From IMG/VR virus record IMGVR_UViG_3300049855_000345, positions 1 to 64,000 of that record: 64,000 nt of DNA. One strand, given 5' to 3'. The translations under genes were made by a program, and so were the position numbers. Under the pieces are notes generated by a model. That model saw nothing but the letters and a program-made list of their open reading frames with translations. It made no database searches and was not told the origin of the DNA. Source of the stretch: a virus. Shown here piece by piece: positions 10,674 to 43,533 of this stretch. Position 1 is the stretch's first letter. Each line of letters opens with the position of its first letter.

Positions 10674-11588
10674 ATGTCCGAAATAGTTAATTGCCCTATC
10701 ACAGACTGCAAACAAAAAGACACTAAATTGCTAACCAGTGATTCTGATGTAGCTTTATCCACTCTGCAAAAACTGCGTCTTGAAATCTTGGCGCAGCAAA
10801 GAGACAACTTGGCTGTCATAGCGGGAGCCGTTTGTTCTGATAAACATCTGTTTGACGGAGATCGGTGGTATGACCTTGTTGGGTTTCGTAAACCTGAACC
10901 GCCCTCAGTCAAAGAGCCAGAGGTTCTCATATCTCCTAATCCTCCTAAGAAAACGAAACAAGAGAAAAAACTAGCTTGGTTACGCGAAATTCTGCACTGG
11001 CGTAATGACAGCATTTATTTTACGGTTTTTGATCCTACCACCCCTGACGGGCCAGTTTTTAAGCAATCTACACGTAAAGATGCAATAGAGATTTACGTTC
11101 TGCTAGACCCCCTCGACAATACTGTTCGTTATGTTGGCGCGTCTTGGCACGCCCGCACAAGATTTCGCAAACACAAAGATCCAAACTATCCAGACAACAA
11201 CTGGGAGTTGACGAAATGGAAAACAGATGTGAGGAACAGCTTCCGTTATGCTGTAATCGCCTCTGTGGATCCGGGTGTTTGGGAAGATGCGGAGCGCGCG
11301 TGGATTGCCTACTATAGACAGCGTGGGCATGTGTATAATATTGAGGAAGGTGGTATCTCACCAAGACGCGCAGCGGAAAAAGCACAGCGCCGAGAGAAGC
11401 AGAAGAAGCAACCTAAAAAAGCGCCAAAATCAGAAAAGCTCCCACGTAAACCGAACAAGACAATTCCCAGGTATATTACCGAGAAGCTACCTCCGCCTCC
11501 TCCTGGTGAACTACCTCACTACTCTTTCGATTCTATTTCAACAGCATCTAGGCCGCCAGTTTTTGCTGTATGTGATGACGAGGACTAG
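10674..11588 (+). CDS. GIY-YIG nuclease-domain protein
   Basis: A 304-residue protein. The GIY-YIG core lies at about 138-225: IEIYVLLD, RYVGAS, R161/R163 with nearby H167, AERAWIAYYRQRG with E207, and YNIEEGG with N222. The first ~100 residues contain a CPITDC pair and probably act in DNA recognition; the tail is lysine- and proline-rich (KKQPKKAPK, LPPPPPGE). It is most likely a free-standing homing-type endonuclease. It opens the rightward island that also has an HNH gene and Thg1. Confidence 0.8.
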   Translation: MSEIVNCPITDCKQKDTKLLTSDSDVALSTLQKLRLEILAQQRDNLAVIAGAVCSDKHLFDGDRWYDLVGFRKPEPPSVKEPEVLISPNPPKKTKQEKKLAWLREILHWRNDSIYFTVFDPTTPDGPVFKQSTRKDAIEIYVLLDPLDNTVRYVGASWHARTRFRKHKDPNYPDNNWELTKWKTDVRNSFRYAVIASVDPGVWEDAERAWIAYYRQRGHVYNIEEGGISPRRAAEKAQRREKQKKQPKKAPKSEKLPRKPNKTIPRYITEKLPPPPPGELPHYSFDSISTASRPPVFAVCDDED

Positions 11589-11605
11589 CCTACTTATCTA
11601 CTAAG

Positions 11606-11947
11606 GTGGGATACGACCGATTCAAAGTGGCACAAAAACGCAGAGAACTACGCATAGCCGCTATCCACTCTAAAGGTGGTTATTGTCAGCTCTGTGGATA
11701 TGACGGTATGCGCTGCGTGTCAGCGATGCATTTCCACCATACGGACCCTGCCGAGAAAGACTTCAGTATCTCCACAAAGCTAACGTCCTTTGAAGCCATA
11801 AAAGCAGAGCTAATTAAGTGCATTCTGCTTTGTAATAGGTGCCACAGCGAAGTACATGATGGTCTACACCCTGGCTTCCTTGATTTAGGAAACGACACCT
11901 CCTACGAATATGACAATTACTACGAAGACGATTATGAAGGAAATTAA
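11606..11947 (+). CDS. HNH endonuclease
   Basis: A 113-residue protein with a complete zinc-linked HNH domain: CQLCGYD near residue 27, FHHTDPAEKDFSIS near 43, and LLCNRCHSEVH near 74. The C-terminal tail is very acidic (YEYDNYYEDDYEGN). The start is a GTG at 11606 with weak Shine-Dalgarno support; no in-frame ATG precedes the domain. A mobile nuclease or a packaging or repair nuclease are both possible; its place beside a GIY-YIG gene favours a mobile element. Confidence 0.82.
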   Translation: MGYDRFKVAQKRRELRIAAIHSKGGYCQLCGYDGMRCVSAMHFHHTDPAEKDFSISTKLTSFEAIKAELIKCILLCNRCHSEVHDGLHPGFLDLGNDTSYEYDNYYEDDYEGN

Positions 11948-11994
11948 GCGGAATAGCTGCTTACTCTCCGTAGTTACTCAGTAGGAGTATTACA

Positions 11995-12747
11995 ATGGAC
12001 TTAGGCGATCGCATGAAGAGGTACGAAGCCTCTTCTTTGTACCAGTTTCCCGACCGGCTTCCTGTTGTGATTCGTGTCGACGGGAAAGCGTTCCACAGTT
12101 ACACACGTGGGCTCAGTAAGAACGACCCTGGTATCATCAAGGCCATGGACCACGCAGCAAAGACTCTTTGCGAGAAGGTTATGGGCGCTCGCCTGGCTTA
12201 CGTGCAGTCGGACGAAATCTCGGTTTTGGTCAACCCTTGGGGTTCCCATGATTCCCAGGCGTGGTTCGACAACTGCCATCAGAAGTTCGTGTCAACGACC
12301 GCTTCTATCGCTGCGGCTGAAGTGACGGCATTATCCTACGAGATCTTCGGAAAGGTGAAGCCCGCTTACTTTGACTCTCGTGCATTTGTAATTCCGCACG
12401 ATGATGTGACGAACTATTTCATCTGGCGCCAGCAGGATGCTGTCCGTAACTCTATCCAGGTGCTCGGGCAGATGAACTTTTCCCACAAGCAGCTTCACAA
12501 GAAGACTTGTAATATGATCCAAGAGATGCTTTTCCAAGAGAAGGGTATCAACTGGTCTAAGGAGCCTACGCGCTTCAAGCGGGGCTCCTGCGTTGTTAGG
12601 CAGGATACCACAGTGGACACGCCTCGTGGCCCGGCGATTCGCGCCAAATGGGTCGTAGACCTGGAAATCCCCACCTTCACTGAAGACCGTTCATATATCG
12701 AAGATCGCATCTGTCCTAAGACGCGAGAAGAGGATGATGCGGCATGA
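11995..12747 (+). CDS. Thg1-like 3'-5' RNA polymerase (tRNAHis guanylyltransferase family)
   Basis: A 250-residue protein with the family core: RVDGKAFHSYTRG (D29) and YVQSDEISVL (D73), the two metal-binding carboxylate positions, plus FDSRAF and FIWRQQDAVRN. Thg1 adds G-1 to tRNAHis; bacterial Thg1-like proteins extend tRNA 5' ends in the 3'-5' direction and can repair 5'-truncated tRNAs. A TAGGAG site precedes the ATG. The next gene starts at an ATGA overlap. In a phage it probably repairs or edits tRNAs; this role is inference. Confidence 0.92.
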   Translation: MDLGDRMKRYEASSLYQFPDRLPVVIRVDGKAFHSYTRGLSKNDPGIIKAMDHAAKTLCEKVMGARLAYVQSDEISVLVNPWGSHDSQAWFDNCHQKFVSTTASIAAAEVTALSYEIFGKVKPAYFDSRAFVIPHDDVTNYFIWRQQDAVRNSIQVLGQMNFSHKQLHKKTCNMIQEMLFQEKGINWSKEPTRFKRGSCVVRQDTTVDTPRGPAIRAKWVVDLEIPTFTEDRSYIEDRICPKTREEDDAA

Positions 12748-13037
12748 ACCGTCACGACATACTGGAACTGTGCGATAAGGCTCTTTTTGCTTTGGAGTTA
12801 ATGAGGGAACAGCCCCAGCAGTATTATAGCACACGAGAAGCTGTAATGACTTCCTGTTGTTCATTTTTGTATATGTTAGAAATTGATTATGACCGTTTCT
12901 TTTTGAAACATGCAGGCCCAATCATAGGTAGAAACGAGTTTCTTCTAGGGAGAGTAGAAGTAGAGTGGGCCACAAAAGTCCTAGAAGAGACAATTGCTAT
13001 GATAAACCACAAAAAGCTTGATAACCGAGCGGAATGA
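12744..13037 (+). CDS. Hypothetical protein, 97 aa
   Basis: Starts at an ATGA overlap with the Thg1-like gene, so it is translationally coupled. The product is helical, with a CCSFLYMLEIDYDRFF segment. No domain recognised; coupling suggests a role linked to the Thg1-like enzyme, but this is weak inference. Confidence 0.6.
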   Translation: MNRHDILELCDKALFALELMREQPQQYYSTREAVMTSCCSFLYMLEIDYDRFFLKHAGPIIGRNEFLLGRVEVEWATKVLEETIAMINHKKLDNRAE

Positions 13038-22476: not shown

Positions 22477-23562
22477 TCAGCCGTAAATCGAGGTGTATTC
22501 ACTGACTAGGTCGAAACAGAGTCGGTTTAGAAGAACCCTGTCAGCATCCTCAGGTAGTTTGGTAGTAGGCATCAGGACGTCGCGAATTTCAACCAAAACA
22601 GCCTCAATTTCATTCACCAGATCTTCATATTTCTCTGATCCGTGACGTTTAAGTGCGATTAGTCGCGGCGCATCATAGGTCCTTTTAACGAGGAGACCTT
22701 TACCCTCCATCATTTCTTTGCAATTGTAGACGAGACGCATGCAGTGTGAGGCATTTTTGCCGTCGTAACCACATCGTTCTTCTACAGCAGCGCGAGCAGG
22801 GTTGCGTTCTTTGAGCCAACTTTGGTACTGATCCCAATTGTCTTTTGCTCCTTTGTACGCGCGTTCTCGCGCTAGTAGGTCTAGGAAGTTTTCATCAAAA
22901 CCAATACTCCTAGCTGCCGCCCGAAATTTATCATCGTTGGTTAGACCCATCTCTGCGACAAGCTCAGCAATAGTATTCTGGATAAGAATACGTGTACTTG
23001 CTTCAATATAGGACATGTCCTCGAAGTTCCAGTGTTGGAGCTTTTTGGTGACAGCCGACATAGCTGCGTCCATATTTTGTTTGGTGATTTTCGCATGCCC
23101 AATGAGGCCGAATTCTTCACGCATAGGCGGTTTAGCCGGAGGATTCAGGATCCAGTGGCGGTGCGACTTCATCTTTTTGATTTGGCTTAATGCATAACCA
23201 GTGAAGCGGTGTACCGCCTTTTTAGATAGGAAAGCGTCTTTATGTTCGCGCAGCTTTAGACCAAACCTATCCATTTTTAGGATATCTTCAGGTTCTACAT
23301 GCAGCATTTCTACGATATTAGGGTTGCAGTCAGCCGCTAATGCCATGAACTTCTGTAGACCGTAGATTGTACTATCTACAGGATGCCCTTTTCGAACCTC
23401 CAGAATTTGCTGCTCAAACTTGTGGGTGAACCCTAAGTAATACATTAATGGTGCGATACATACACCTTTCTCATCCACATCGCTTTCTGGGGTATTCAAC
23501 CCGTACGCATGGCTTCCTGCTCGTGTATGATATATGGTTCGGTTTTGGACGTTGAAGTTCAT
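22477..23562 (-). CDS. RlaP-like nucleotidyltransferase
   Basis: A 361-residue protein with the nucleotidyltransferase signature AGSHAYGLNTPESDVDEKGV at 15-34: GS, then DxD at D28 and D30. This matches the predicted nucleotidyltransferase family named RlaP, whose members often sit beside RNA ligases. The large helical C-terminal part (KMKSHRHWIL, LLARERAYKG, MMEGKGLLVKR) fits that family. It probably adds nucleotides to RNA ends or adenylylates a substrate. Its role with the Hen1-ligase fusion at 31165 is an inference. Confidence 0.82.
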   Translation of the reverse strand: MNFNVQNRTIYHTRAGSHAYGLNTPESDVDEKGVCIAPLMYYLGFTHKFEQQILEVRKGHPVDSTIYGLQKFMALAADCNPNIVEMLHVEPEDILKMDRFGLKLREHKDAFLSKKAVHRFTGYALSQIKKMKSHRHWILNPPAKPPMREEFGLIGHAKITKQNMDAAMSAVTKKLQHWNFEDMSYIEASTRILIQNTIAELVAEMGLTNDDKFRAAARSIGFDENFLDLLARERAYKGAKDNWDQYQSWLKERNPARAAVEERCGYDGKNASHCMRLVYNCKEMMEGKGLLVKRTYDAPRLIALKRHGSEKYEDLVNEIEAVLVEIRDVLMPTTKLPEDADRVLLNRLCFDLVSEYTSIYG

Positions 23563-31164: not shown

Positions 31165-33819
31165 TCATAAGGTTTTGTCTACGGTAGGCCCGACAGCGTG
31201 CTCTAGGCTAAAGAACGCAGCAATATTACGAAGACGACTAAGCGTCGCACCGTTGACGAAGCTATGCAGGATTTGCACAGCGATTTCCTGCTCCTGCGCA
31301 GCCAGCAGGCGCTTACGCCGAGTTCCACGTTCAGTTAGAGACTTGAACAACTCCGGTTCTAGGTAGTCGATTCCGTAGATTAGTCGGAGGTACTCTTTTC
31401 CTCGAACTTTGAGCGCGGTTTGGTTGGGGAACCCATTTTCCTGGAAGGTAATGGGGTTGCACGGCTTATAGACGAAGCCCTCACCACCCTTAGCGCAGTA
31501 GTTTTCCCAAGCGGTTGCGGACAAGTCACAGAAGAACTCGTCATTGGTATCCACACGTACAGTTTTAACTGGCTTGAGGATGTCGCCTTCTAGACCACGC
31601 AGTACCGTGCAATACTGTTCCCACATATCCTGGTAGAAGCCCAACTTGATGTTATTGAATGGGTTTCTGTTGATTCGACCGTCACGATACCATACGTCGC
31701 CTGTAGCTAGTACATGGAAGGGGTGGACAGTAACAGGGCGTTTTTCCGTATAATTTCGGAGAGAAGCTAGAAAGGCGGCAGACCTAGTATACTCTGCTTC
31801 TGTTCCGAATCGATTACGCCAGATAAGCGAAGCCTCACCGGGCAGCTGGAAGTCACGTTCGATCAGCGAATCCGCCTTATAAGACCAAGGTAGAATCTCT
31901 GCGTCCAACATGATGAAATCCGACTTCATCTTAGGGACGAGGTCACGGTAGATAGCGTCTAGCTCAGGGGCACCACGGTCGAAAAACCGTACCCCAGACC
32001 TGGAGTTTACCGTTACAGCATGCTCGAAGCCTAGCTCCTGAGCAGCCTCAGGATTCTTGAAGCACAGAACGTAGCCGCGACTTCCCATCAACTTTTGTTG
32101 CTCGATAACGTAGCGAATTCCACGCTCTCGGAAATACTTGAACGCGGTGTTTGGGTGCTCTAGGCAAGTATCGCCCTCCGTATAATCAACCGGAGGTAGA
32201 GTCGGACCAAGATAGAAAATCTCATTGGCGTTAGCCAGGAAAGCGCTGGTTTTCACACCTTCAGCGAGGTCCTTTCCAGAAACGATTAGATTGGTGTGCT
32301 GGTAATACAAAGTATCGTACATGATACTGGTGAATGGGTTGGATTCCTCTGCGTCAGCCTTCCGCTTAGCCCTAATGAAGAAAGACGGCTGAAGGAGTCG
32401 AGGGTCTACGTCCTCAGAGAACTGTCGGATAAGCTCTTTGCTCTCATCTTCCGAGAGACCGCGCTTCGCAATTACTGAAGCAAGGTAACTTTGTGGCTCG
32501 ACGATAGGAAGCAAATCTACGTCATAGCGATCAGTAAGAGGGGCCACGATCTCAGCCAGGAAGGATTCCAGGTCGTACTCGATGCGGTGGTCCTTATGCC
32601 GGAACTCACCTGCGGGAATACCGTAGATAGTATTGTAACCCACATTCGGGACAGTAATGAGGATGTTTTTAGCGTTAGTTTGCTTCAGTAGGCTAAGTAC
32701 TGAGGCGCGGTCCGTTTGGTGCAAGTGCTCCAGAATTTCTGTAGCAATGACCACATCGGCATTCATAGCCTCACGGTGCCAGCGTTTCGGGTATGCAATA
32801 TTCTCGACGATAGCCCAAGCGTTGTCCTTAGACAACTTCTCTTTTCGCATGTACTTTTTGAGACGAGAAATCTTCCTCTCATCTGCATCCACGCTGAGAA
32901 CCTTCAGTTCGTTGGGGAACCGAGAGAGCAGCTCCATAGTGAGCTTACCTTCAGAGGTACCCACATCGACAACCTTGTAGAAGTCCCTATCTTCAGTAAT
33001 TTCAGAAAAGATAGTTTTGACAGTGGCCAGCAGCACGTCATGTCGTGCATGGTGGAGTGTATACTTTTGCTCCACATCTTTAGAGTCCTGGCTATTCTCA
33101 CGAGAGACCGTTTCCTCATTCGTAGTCCCGTCTTCGAACTGCTTTACCAAGCTGGCCATGTGCTTGGTTAGCTTTTTAACGATCATGTCTTTATGGGAGC
33201 AGCCGTTAATCCATGAGGACGAAAGGCGGACATACTTATCAACCTGCTCGTTAGTAATATGCGTGTTCCAGGCGAATTTCGCGGTGAACGCAAGGCTCAC
33301 GATATAGATCTTCTGGAGGAACTCAGACACTGACATGTCTTCGAGTGTATTGAATGTATACACTTCTACGAACTCTACGGTATCTACCGGAGAGGGCGCC
33401 GTTGGCGTTGCTTGGATCTTAAGACTCTCTAGCGCTTCCACAAACGCTTTACTCATCTTAGGGAAGGGGCCAAGCTCCGCTTGCTGCGCAGTCTTCAGCT
33501 CGAATTTCTCTTGTGGGAACGTACTTTTGCTTCCGTTCTGCCCAAAGAGCGCAGAACGCAGGCATTCCGAGAGGCCACGGAGATTGAAAGGACAGACAAT
33601 CCAAGGCTCGGGACGCACGTATGCAGCCTCGTTCCTCTCCTTCATCGACTGGGTAAAGACCAGCAAATCGTTCTTTACCAGCAGGCGGTATTCGGTATCG
33701 GAGCTAAACGAGCCGGTGACCGTGCGCCCAGTTTCGTACGTCTTCTCGTACACAGAGCCAGGACGTTTGCAGAGAATCCAGGACAGATCGGGATTATTAC
33801 TGATGAGCTTGAAAAACAT
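31165..33819 (-). CDS. Hen1 methyltransferase fused to Pnkp-type RNA ligase
   Basis: An 884-residue fusion. Residues ~1-240 resemble the bacterial Hen1 N-terminal ligase-activating domain (WILCKRPGSVYEK, YVRPEPWIVCPF, EQVDKYVRLSSSWI). Residues ~253-450 are the Hen1 methyltransferase: VVDVGTSEGKL (SAM site), ATEILEHLHQ giving E361, E364 and H365, then PNVGYN and RHKDHRIEY with H411. Residues ~505-884 match the ligase domain of bacterial Pnkp: LPPVD, LEHPNTAF, IEQQKLMGSRGY with nucleophile K576, SGVRFF, LDAEILPWSYKAD, GGEGFVYKP and RGKEYLRLIYG. Kinase and phosphatase domains of Pnkp are absent. Hen1 2'-O-methylates a repaired 3' end so it resists re-cleavage, and the ligase seals it. Confidence 0.92.
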   Translation of the reverse strand: MFFKLISNNPDLSWILCKRPGSVYEKTYETGRTVTGSFSSDTEYRLLVKNDLLVFTQSMKERNEAAYVRPEPWIVCPFNLRGLSECLRSALFGQNGSKSTFPQEKFELKTAQQAELGPFPKMSKAFVEALESLKIQATPTAPSPVDTVEFVEVYTFNTLEDMSVSEFLQKIYIVSLAFTAKFAWNTHITNEQVDKYVRLSSSWINGCSHKDMIVKKLTKHMASLVKQFEDGTTNEETVSRENSQDSKDVEQKYTLHHARHDVLLATVKTIFSEITEDRDFYKVVDVGTSEGKLTMELLSRFPNELKVLSVDADERKISRLKKYMRKEKLSKDNAWAIVENIAYPKRWHREAMNADVVIATEILEHLHQTDRASVLSLLKQTNAKNILITVPNVGYNTIYGIPAGEFRHKDHRIEYDLESFLAEIVAPLTDRYDVDLLPIVEPQSYLASVIAKRGLSEDESKELIRQFSEDVDPRLLQPSFFIRAKRKADAEESNPFTSIMYDTLYYQHTNLIVSGKDLAEGVKTSAFLANANEIFYLGPTLPPVDYTEGDTCLEHPNTAFKYFRERGIRYVIEQQKLMGSRGYVLCFKNPEAAQELGFEHAVTVNSRSGVRFFDRGAPELDAIYRDLVPKMKSDFIMLDAEILPWSYKADSLIERDFQLPGEASLIWRNRFGTEAEYTRSAAFLASLRNYTEKRPVTVHPFHVLATGDVWYRDGRINRNPFNNIKLGFYQDMWEQYCTVLRGLEGDILKPVKTVRVDTNDEFFCDLSATAWENYCAKGGEGFVYKPCNPITFQENGFPNQTALKVRGKEYLRLIYGIDYLEPELFKSLTERGTRRKRLLAAQEQEIAVQILHSFVNGATLSRLRNIAAFFSLEHAVGPTVDKTL

Positions 33820-42544: not shown

Positions 42545-42944
42545 CTACGTATTCTAGCTGAGGGAGCAGTTGCTCTTTTGCGTAGCGTTTCGCAGCAGAC
42601 AACAGCTCTTCAAAGTCAAGACACTGGAACATTTCTAGCCTATTCCGAATTCTGCGACTACAATTTACGATAGTTGCTCCACGTCCCTTTACGCAGGAGG
42701 CGTTAATGGTGAAAACAATCTCCCCGTTGAATAACATCACTAAAGGCTGCCAGGTCGCTTGTTTATCTGTTTGCCTCCACCTTGTGCACCCGATGGTAGT
42801 GCTTATCGGTAGATCTTCATCACACTCTGTGTCAGGAACTTCCAATACTTCGAGCATGGCGGTTTCTACCTGCTCCGCTTGCGTATGGATTTTAGCGATT
42901 TCTCGCTCCCACCACCAGACTTCCATATCTATTACGTTGTTCAC
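42537..42944 (-). CDS. Hypothetical protein, 135 aa
   Basis: A 135-residue protein with a WWWEREIAKIHTQAEQVETA helix and a beta-rich centre (GCTRWRQTDKQATWQPLVML). It overlaps the HAD gene end by 4 nt. No domain recognised. Confidence 0.55.
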   Translation of the reverse strand: MNNVIDMEVWWWEREIAKIHTQAEQVETAMLEVLEVPDTECDEDLPISTTIGCTRWRQTDKQATWQPLVMLFNGEIVFTINASCVKGRGATIVNCSRRIRNRLEMFQCLDFEELLSAAKRYAKEQLLPQLEYVDD

Positions 42945-43450
42945 TGTGGGCTGCCTTGTATTTCGTGGTAACCGTGGTACGTGATAAGGAACACACGTGT
43001 CAGCGGGCAGCGCTCTTTAGCTGCGTAGGCGAGGTACTCGTCATTTTCCAGGTAATAGATTTTACGTTCTTCCATATGTTCTATAACGATGTCTACAAAC
43101 CTGCTCATCTTCTCGACGTAGGCGTCTGTGGTGCTTTTTGCACCTCTCATGTTTATTTCGTCGATACGTAATCCGGCATTAGCTAACCACAACTTTGTCC
43201 TTTTGTGGTAGTTGACTCGCACGCCCTCATGGTTTGTATACCGTGAGGGACGTGCTGTCAGTGCCGCCATGATTGGTTTCATGCCGCTATCGTTGTTTCG
43301 TAGCAATTCTTCAATGAGATCCAGGCCTGGTTTATTCACGTTATCTTCGTCGGAATGTTCGAAAAAGCTAACAAGATCTCCTTCTTTTAAGAACTTGTGC
43401 CTGTGTCTATCATCAGCCACTGTGCCGTCTATATCAGTAATGATTAGCAT
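42941..43450 (-). CDS. HAD-family phosphatase of the PNK 3'-phosphatase type
   Basis: The start at 43448-43450 (MLIITDIDGTVADDRHRHKF) overlaps the stop of an upstream 29-codon gene. DIDGTV is the HAD motif I with two catalytic aspartates; AALTARPSRYTNHEGVR is the motif II region with T; KSTTDAYVEK and YYLENDEY follow as motifs III-IV. The layout resembles the 3'-phosphatase domain of T4 polynucleotide kinase. It could remove 3' or cyclic phosphates before ligation, but a nucleotidase role is also possible. Confidence 0.78.
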   Translation of the reverse strand: MLIITDIDGTVADDRHRHKFLKEGDLVSFFEHSDEDNVNKPGLDLIEELLRNNDSGMKPIMAALTARPSRYTNHEGVRVNYHKRTKLWLANAGLRIDEINMRGAKSTTDAYVEKMSRFVDIVIEHMEERKIYYLENDEYLAYAAKERCPLTRVFLITYHGYHEIQGSPQ

Positions 43451-43533
43451 GAGGATAATCCCCATACTGCTACTGTTGCTAATAAGCACAGCCCTAGTAG
43501 GGCCTTATTGAAGTCTTTGCTACTGTTTTCCAT
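43444..43533 (-). CDS. Small hydrophobic peptide, 29 aa
   Basis: Reads MENSSKDFNKALLGLCLLAT and ends in WGLSSC. The hydrophobic core resembles a single membrane span or a lipoprotein-like leader. It exactly fills the gap between recA and the HAD gene, with GAG before its ATG, and its stop overlaps the HAD start, supporting coupled translation. Confidence 0.45.
   Translation of the reverse strand: MENSSKDFNKALLGLCLLATVAVWGLSSC

What the first reader, a model, noticed from the sequence alone, without database searches (positions are those of the whole stretch)
31165..33819. Phage single-chain Hen1 methyltransferase plus Pnkp-type RNA ligase
In bacteria the Pnkp/Hen1 RNA-repair pathway is split: Pnkp has kinase, phosphatase and ligase domains, and a separate Hen1 activates the ligase and methylates the repaired end. 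Here one 884-residue protein joins the full Hen1 (ligase-activating region plus MTase with E361, E364, H365 and H411) directly to the Pnkp ligase module (K576 in QQKLMGSR, LDAEILPWSYKAD, GGEGFVYKP). Kinase and phosphatase domains are missing. This would give a phage one enzyme that seals a cleaved RNA and protects it from re-cleavage, a natural counter to tRNA-cutting defences.
Basis: partly seen in the sequence, partly recalled or inferred. Interest (0 to 1): 0.92.

Follow-up and report, generated by a model that had tools for sequence, protein, structure and literature searches.

The report
Phage one-chain RNA sealing-and-methylating enzyme
A bacterial virus encodes, as one protein, the two halves of a bacterial RNA-repair machine (one chemically protects a broken RNA end, the other glues the ends together); the same one-piece version occurs in other viruses and one tiny bacterium, so it is a real, rare variant that probably lets the virus undo RNA cutting by its host.

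Summary
Confirmed: window 31165-33819 (-) is one 884-residue frame joining a complete bacterial-type Hen1 (ligase-activating domain 1-217; methyltransferase 254-489 with E361/E364/H365/H411) to a complete Pnkp-type RNA ligase (520-884, K576). Family matches, invariant catalytic residues and an AlphaFold2 model matched to solved Hen1 and Pnkp domains (Z 19-22) agree. Kinase and phosphatase domains are absent from the chain. It is no artefact: one-chain relatives occur in a 275-kb viral contig, two other viral contigs and a Candidatus Falkowbacteria chromosome, so it is not phage-only. Hen1 plus Pnkp-type ligase as separate genes was already reported in phage XacN1; I found no report of the one-chain form, but a key review was unreadable here. 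Best reading: a seal-and-methylate enzyme for 5'-phosphate/3'-OH RNA ends, with end healing by separate proteins. The 275-kb relative has an HD + P-loop kinase-like gene three genes downstream; this phage has a weak PNKP-like HAD phosphatase about 9 kb away, plus RlaP and Thg1. The record is a 67.5-kb fragment, so lack of a kinase is unproven. A counter-defence role is plausible but untested. New variant of a known kind.

The parts
31165..33819 (-). Single-chain Hen1-RNA ligase gene, 884 aa
33169..33819 (-). Hen1 N-terminal ligase-activating domain, residues 1-217
   Evidence: Hen1_L 26.4 bits; model matches CthHen1-N 4e6n_B Z 19.6, rmsd 2.9, 203 aligned
32353..33060 (-). Hen1-type 2'-O-methyltransferase domain, residues 254-489; metal site E361, E364, H365, H411
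   Evidence: model matches AvHen1 3jwh_B Z 22.4, rmsd 1.9; residues conserved in all 36 Hen1 rows of A6
32263..32352 (-). Low-confidence linker between Hen1 and ligase, residues 490-519
   Evidence: pLDDT below 50 at 493-537
31165..32262 (-). Pnkp-type adenylyltransferase/RNA ligase, residues 520-884
   Evidence: PF16542 192 bits; model matches CthPnkp ligase 3ty8_B Z 19.3, rmsd 3.6, 308 aligned
32092..32094 (-). Codon of K576, predicted lysyl-AMP nucleophile (motif I, KLMGSR)
   Evidence: invariant in A2 and A6
31747..31866 (-). Helical insertion region of the ligase (residues 652-691); motif III-IV spacing is 132 residues against about 141 in most cellular Pnkp, also short in other one-chain proteins
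42941..43489 (-). HAD protein resembling the PNKP 3'-phosphatase; candidate trans-acting healing enzyme (weak, below the Pfam cut-off)
   Evidence: PF25109 22.4 bits, phrog_415 'polynucleotide kinase' E 2.9e-11, DxDGT motif conserved
22477..23562 (-). RlaP RNA-repair nucleotidyltransferase; possible partner
   Evidence: PF10127 84.9 bits
11995..12747 (+). Thg1-like 3'-5' polymerase / tRNA-His guanylyltransferase; possible partner
   Evidence: PF04446 82 bits, phrog_4717 276 bits

Best explanation
One polypeptide works as a self-activated, methylating RNA ligase. The Hen1 N-terminal domain is expected to hold the ligase insertion module open in cis, the methyltransferase adds a 2'-O-methyl to the 3'-terminal ribose, and the ligase adenylates K576, transfers AMP to a 5'-phosphate and seals it to the 3'-OH. 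The repaired RNA (most likely tRNA) is then resistant to re-cleavage at that bond. Substrates must have 5'-phosphate and 3'-OH ends: either made directly by metal-dependent nucleases (for example the PARIS effector AriB) or prepared by separate healing enzymes. Shown: domains, catalytic residues, predicted folds, recurrence in independent contigs. Inferred: activities, cis activation, substrate, counter-defence role.
For: All three domains are recognised by sequence and in the model. Catalytic residues are invariant. One-chain relatives occur in L184/L183 (33% identity over the full length, E 9e-155), L064, L017 and L027. Hen1 and ligase trees both join window with L064 (100/99 and 100/97), so the halves appear to have travelled together. 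In L184 the chain is followed by an NADAR protein, an HD + P-loop kinase-like protein and RlaP, which fits healing in trans. In L064 it lies beside RtcB and archease, which would cover the opposite end chemistry. Published: the Rnl-Hen1 heterodimer ligates 3'-OH/5'-PO4 RNA without Pnkp1, SAM raises the rate and the product made with SAM resists colicin D (PMC4411300). AriB leaves 5'-P/3'-OH tRNA ends (PMC12409363).
Against: No activity data. The Hen1 N-terminal domain is weak in sequence (Hen1_N 24.8 bits, below its cut-off of 27). Inter-domain placement is unsure (pTM 0.62, linker below pLDDT 50), so cis activation was not tested. No tRNA genes in the window and no neighbour ties it to tRNA. 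HAD, RlaP and Thg1 lie about 8-21 kb away, not in one operon.
Confidence: 0.75

Rival explanations
1. The chain is only the sealing half of a full Pnkp/Hen1-like pathway: phage-encoded kinase and phosphatase (on the missing part of the genome, or the HAD at 42941-43489) always act with it, so it functions as the ordinary system cut at a different place. This overlaps with the best explanation and differs on whether healing is obligatory.
For: Contig is a fragment and its terminase matches mostly 200-258 kb phages; HAD_PNKP-like protein present; L184 has an HD + P-loop kinase-like protein downstream; phage modules are shuffled in many ways (kinase+MPP gene apart from ligase and Hen1 in L045; Hen1-kinase-HAD plus separate ligase in L001, L003, L019).
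Against: No AAA_33 kinase in this record; the HAD match is below the curated cut-off; none of the other one-chain viral records has a HAD_PNKP match. The HD and kinase matches in L184 are themselves weak.
Confidence: 0.5
2. It serves processing or repair of the phage's own RNAs (or tRNA maturation) rather than countering host defence.
For: The Falkowbacteria copy sits beside RtcB/archease on a chromosomal contig with the ribosomal-protein operon, so the family is not tied to phage-host conflict alone.
Against: Known Hen1/Pnkp-type systems are repair systems whose methyl group gives resistance to re-cleavage (PMC4411300); jumbo phages hold many RNA-repair parts read as counter-defence (PMC7824862); no tRNA genes here.
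Confidence: 0.2
3. Sequencing or assembly artefact that fuses two neighbouring genes.
For: Cellular Hen1 and Pnkp genes are adjacent and often overlap by a few bases, and L042 has Hen1 and ligase as overlapping genes.
Against: A fusion of adjacent cellular genes would keep kinase and phosphatase between them; the same one-chain layout occurs in several other contigs, with an aligned joint region in L064.
Confidence: 0.02

Closest known systems
[quoted passage not shown] 4drf, 4e6n, 3ty8, 3jwg)
   Same: Hen1 N-domain, Hen1 methyltransferase and Pnkp ligase domain all present with catalytic residues; order Hen1 then ligase
   Different: Two proteins in bacteria, one chain here; kinase and metallophosphatase domains of Pnkp absent; shorter ligase insertion
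Rnl-Hen1 part of the Pnkp1-Rnl-Hen1 complex (4xrp, 4xru; PMC4411300)
   Same: Ligase without its own kinase/phosphatase paired with Hen1; seals pre-healed ends and methylates
   Different: Separate chains; by sequence the ligase is far closer to the Pnkp type (E 3.5e-36) than to Rnl (E 0.15)
Jumbo phage XacN1 ORF198 (Hen1) and ORF197 (Pnkp-type ligase); also Stenotrophomonas phage RAS14
   Same: Phage-borne Hen1 plus kinase-less Pnkp-type ligase, adjacent; Hen1/PNKP homology reported in PMC5852040
   Different: Two genes; belong to another clade in both trees
Vibrio phages RYC and vB_VpaM_sm033: Hen1-kinase-HAD chain plus separate ligase
   Same: Phage-borne Hen1 repair parts in a fused form
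   Different: Hen1 is fused to kinase and phosphatase instead of the ligase
One-chain relatives L184/L183, L064, L017, L027
   Same: Identical domain order in one chain
   Different: About 22-37% identity; unannotated; found here

Membership tests
Bacterial Hen1 (TIGR04074 / PF12623) | N-terminal ligase-activating domain | tested here: met
   Hen1_L 26.4 bits, cut-off 23; fold Z 19.6 to 4e6n_B
Bacterial Hen1 (TIGR04074 / PF12623) | Methyltransferase with metal site E-x2-E-H ... H | tested here: met
   E361, E364, H365, H411 invariant; fold Z 22.4 to 3jwh_B
Bacterial Hen1 (TIGR04074 / PF12623) | Full-length equivalog score (340 bits) | tested here: not met
   102 bits
Pnkp-type RNA ligase domain (PF16542) | Ligase domain above curated cut-off with its catalytic motifs | tested here: met
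   192 bits, cut-off 28.2; K576, D639, E641, E780, K785, K804 invariant
Bacterial Pnkp (TIGR04075) | Kinase and metallophosphatase modules in the same chain | tested here: not met
   TIGR04075 matches profile 475-834 only, 170.7 bits against 750; no kinase/phosphatase hit in the chain
Pnkp/Hen1 RNA-repair system | Kinase, phosphatase, ligase and methyltransferase all encoded | tested here: inconclusive
   Weak HAD_PNKP candidate, no AAA_33 kinase, record is a fragment
Pnkp/Hen1 RNA-repair system | Hen1-dependent sealing and 2'-O-methylation of RNA | not testable with these tools
   needs biochemistry
Rnl of Pnkp1-Rnl-Hen1 | Sequence relationship to Rnl | tested here: inconclusive
   4xru_B E 0.15 against 3.5e-36 for Pnkp ligase

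The most novel reading that the evidence does not exclude
A distinct, minimal repair strategy: one-chain Hen1-ligases need no healing and answer metal-dependent tRNA nucleases that leave 5'-phosphate/3'-OH ends (such as PARIS AriB), complementary to RtcB-type or T4-type repair of 5'-OH/2',3'-cyclic-phosphate breaks; the form has moved between phages and a Patescibacterium.
Probability: 0.2. Interest if true: 0.8.

Novelty: new variant of a known kind. Interest (0 to 1): 0.6.

Why it matters
The in vivo RNA substrates of Pnkp/Hen1-type repair are unknown (PMC4411300). A single phage protein with all sealing and methylating parts is easy to express, mutate and test against named tRNA-cutting defences, and would show whether phages not only repair cut tRNAs but also make them resistant to a second cut. 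It may also be a compact tool enzyme for joining and 2'-O-methylating RNA.

Tried and rejected
The search for related loci with the single protein, with L064 alone and with the HAD alone found nothing; alignments were needed. The first alignment meant for AlphaFold (A5) placed Hen1 rows on the ligase half and was discarded; A6 was checked residue by residue before use. Assembly artefact considered and rejected because the layout recurs. Phage-only origin rejected: L064 is on a contig with the ribosomal-protein operon; only 1 of 380 Patescibacteria genomes has it, and L064 groups with phage L184 (98/90), so transfer is likely but its direction is unproven. Single origin of all one-chain proteins not settled: the trees need at least 2 changes and L017, L027, L042 are long branches. 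VapC as a 5'-P/3'-OH example was dropped because PMC6459853 reports 5'-OH ends. The review by Burroughs and Aravind (NAR 2016, recalled from memory; RNA-repair domain architectures) is not in the library, so prior mention of this fusion cannot be excluded. Literature searches found no report of it.

Full report
OBSERVATION. The ORF 31165..33819 (-) encodes 884 residues in one frame, preceded by an AGAGG-like ribosome-binding site; an open run of this length has a chance of about 10^-20. Pfam finds PNKP_ligase at 525-865 (192 bits), Hen1_L at 11-227 (26.4 bits, cut-off 23) and methyltransferase families at about 260-390. NCBIfam finds bacter_Hen1 over 10-439 and bacter_Pnkp over 525-865, the latter matching only profile positions 475-834, that is the ligase part of Pnkp. 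The best PDB sequence matches are the C. thermocellum Pnkp ligase and the Hen1 methyltransferases.

RESIDUES. In an alignment of Hen1 proteins from phages and bacteria, E361, E364, H365 and H411 are invariant; in the ligase alignment K576, D639, E641, E780, K785 and K804 are. In the 55-row alignment A6 all 36 Hen1 rows keep E, E, H, H and all ligase rows keep the ligase residues.

STRUCTURE. AlphaFold2 on A6 gave mean pLDDT 80.4 and pTM 0.62. Second-look alignment with PDB chains: 1-217 to Hen1-N 4e6n_B (Z 19.6, rmsd 2.9, 203 aligned), 254-489 to Hen1 methyltransferase 3jwh_B (Z 22.4, rmsd 1.9, 181 aligned), 520-882 to Pnkp ligase 3ty8_B (Z 19.3, rmsd 3.6, 308 aligned); Foldseek ranks the Pnkp-C/Hen1-N entries first. 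Inter-domain placement is not reliable, so the expected Hen1-N/ligase contact was not tested.

RELATIVES AND ARCHITECTURES. A viral-contig scan with the ligase profile found 16 relatives, with the Hen1 profile 23, and a bacterial/archaeal genome scan 589, of which 80 were kept. Domain maps show: canonical kinase-phosphatase-ligase Pnkp with Hen1 next door in 69 of 80 genome loci; Hen1 next to Pnkp in most viral loci; Hen1-kinase-HAD chains with separate ligase (RYC, sm033, L019); Hen1 and kinase-less ligase as two genes (XacN1, RAS14, L026, L062, L042). One-chain Hen1-ligase occurs in the window, L017 (809 aa), L027 (871 aa), L064 (848 aa) and, found with a narrower profile, L183/L184 (877 aa, in two contigs of 152 and 275 kb; 33% identity to the window over the whole length). 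L015 is a broken or misassembled relative: only parts matching window residues 1-118 and 687-884 remain, side by side in different frames.

PHYLOGENY. Ligase and Hen1 trees agree: window joins L064 (100/97 and 100/99), outside the canonical cellular clade and far from the XacN1/RYC clade. With L184 added to the ligase tree, L064 and L184 pair (98/90) and window is next (88/65, not firm), with the unfused L042 nearby (96/93). Long branches forbid a firm count of fusion origins.

CONTEXT. The record is a 67.5-kb viral fragment. A terminase large subunit whose nearest database relatives are mostly phages of 200-258 kb, SbcCD, DnaB-like helicase, sliding clamp and UvsX-like recombinase mark a tailed, possibly jumbo, phage. 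In the same record are a HAD protein resembling PNKP phosphatase (42941-43489), RlaP (22477-23562) and Thg1 (11995-12747); no AAA_33 kinase was found and the only metallophosphoesterase is SbcD-like. In L184 the chain is followed by NADAR, a small protein, an HD + P-loop protein (phrog_6931, 97.8 bits, unknown function; HD and polynucleotide kinase matches weak) and, further on, RlaP. From memory, HD-Pnk proteins of bacteria heal RNA ends; that is a lead, not a test. In L017/L038 the chain is followed by an overlapping HAD (nucleotidase-like) gene and has a 2H phosphoesterase, another RNA ligase and Thg1 nearby. In L064 it neighbours RtcB and archease on a chromosomal contig.

MECHANISM. Published work states that Hen1's N-terminal domain activates the Pnkp ligase by locking its insertion domain, that the Rnl-Hen1 heterodimer seals 3'-OH/5'-PO4 RNA, faster with SAM, and that product made with SAM resists colicin D (PMC4411300). 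The one-chain protein looks like the covalent equivalent of that heterodimer, built from Pnkp-type parts. It lacks healing domains, so it needs 5'-P/3'-OH ends, produced either by metal-dependent nucleases such as AriB of PARIS (PMC12409363) or by separate healing enzymes. The context of relatives favours healing in trans, but the evidence for it in this phage is weak and the record is incomplete. Counter-defence is the most likely role by analogy with jumbo-phage RNA repair (PMC7824862); it is inference.

NOVELTY. Phage Hen1 plus Pnkp homologue as two genes is published for XacN1 (PMC5852040); a putative Pnkp1-Rnl-Hen1 cluster is reported for Borgs (PMC11208441). I found no report of the one-chain form, but the most relevant review was not available. 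Verdict: a new architectural variant of a known RNA-repair system.

Noticed in passing
window 10674-13037 (+): A short block of plus-strand genes in an otherwise mostly minus-strand record: a GIY-YIG-like protein (by eye), an HNH-like protein (by eye) and Thg1.
   Followed up: partly
L017, L018, L021-L023, L046-L048, L051-L053, L063, L011: Thg1 genes lie within about 10 kb of Hen1/ligase genes in several different viral or plasmid contigs; RlaP lies near Hen1 in L039, L057, L184 and L012. Not tested against a background rate.
   Followed up: partly
L064 2533-7665: Falkowbacteria locus: Hen1-ligase chain beside RtcB and archease, two ligases of opposite end chemistry side by side.
   Followed up: yes
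L184 8034-9275: HD + P-loop kinase-like protein of phrog_6931 (unknown function) three genes downstream of the Hen1-ligase chain; candidate RNA end-healing enzyme.
   Followed up: partly
L184 266-2758: Helicase gene interrupted by a LAGLIDADG-bearing, intein-like insert.
   Followed up: no
L015 3024-3906: Broken Hen1-ligase gene: N-terminal and C-terminal parts only, in different frames; true deletion or assembly error.
   Followed up: partly
L042 9017-12090: Hen1-like (582 aa) and ligase (442 aa) as genes overlapping by a few bases, without kinase or phosphatase between: an unfused counterpart near the one-chain clade.
   Followed up: partly
structure search of viral models: Giant viruses (Hokovirus, Yasminevirus, Terrestrivirus) show Hen1-like and metallophosphoesterase/Pnkp-like proteins as structural matches.
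   Followed up: no
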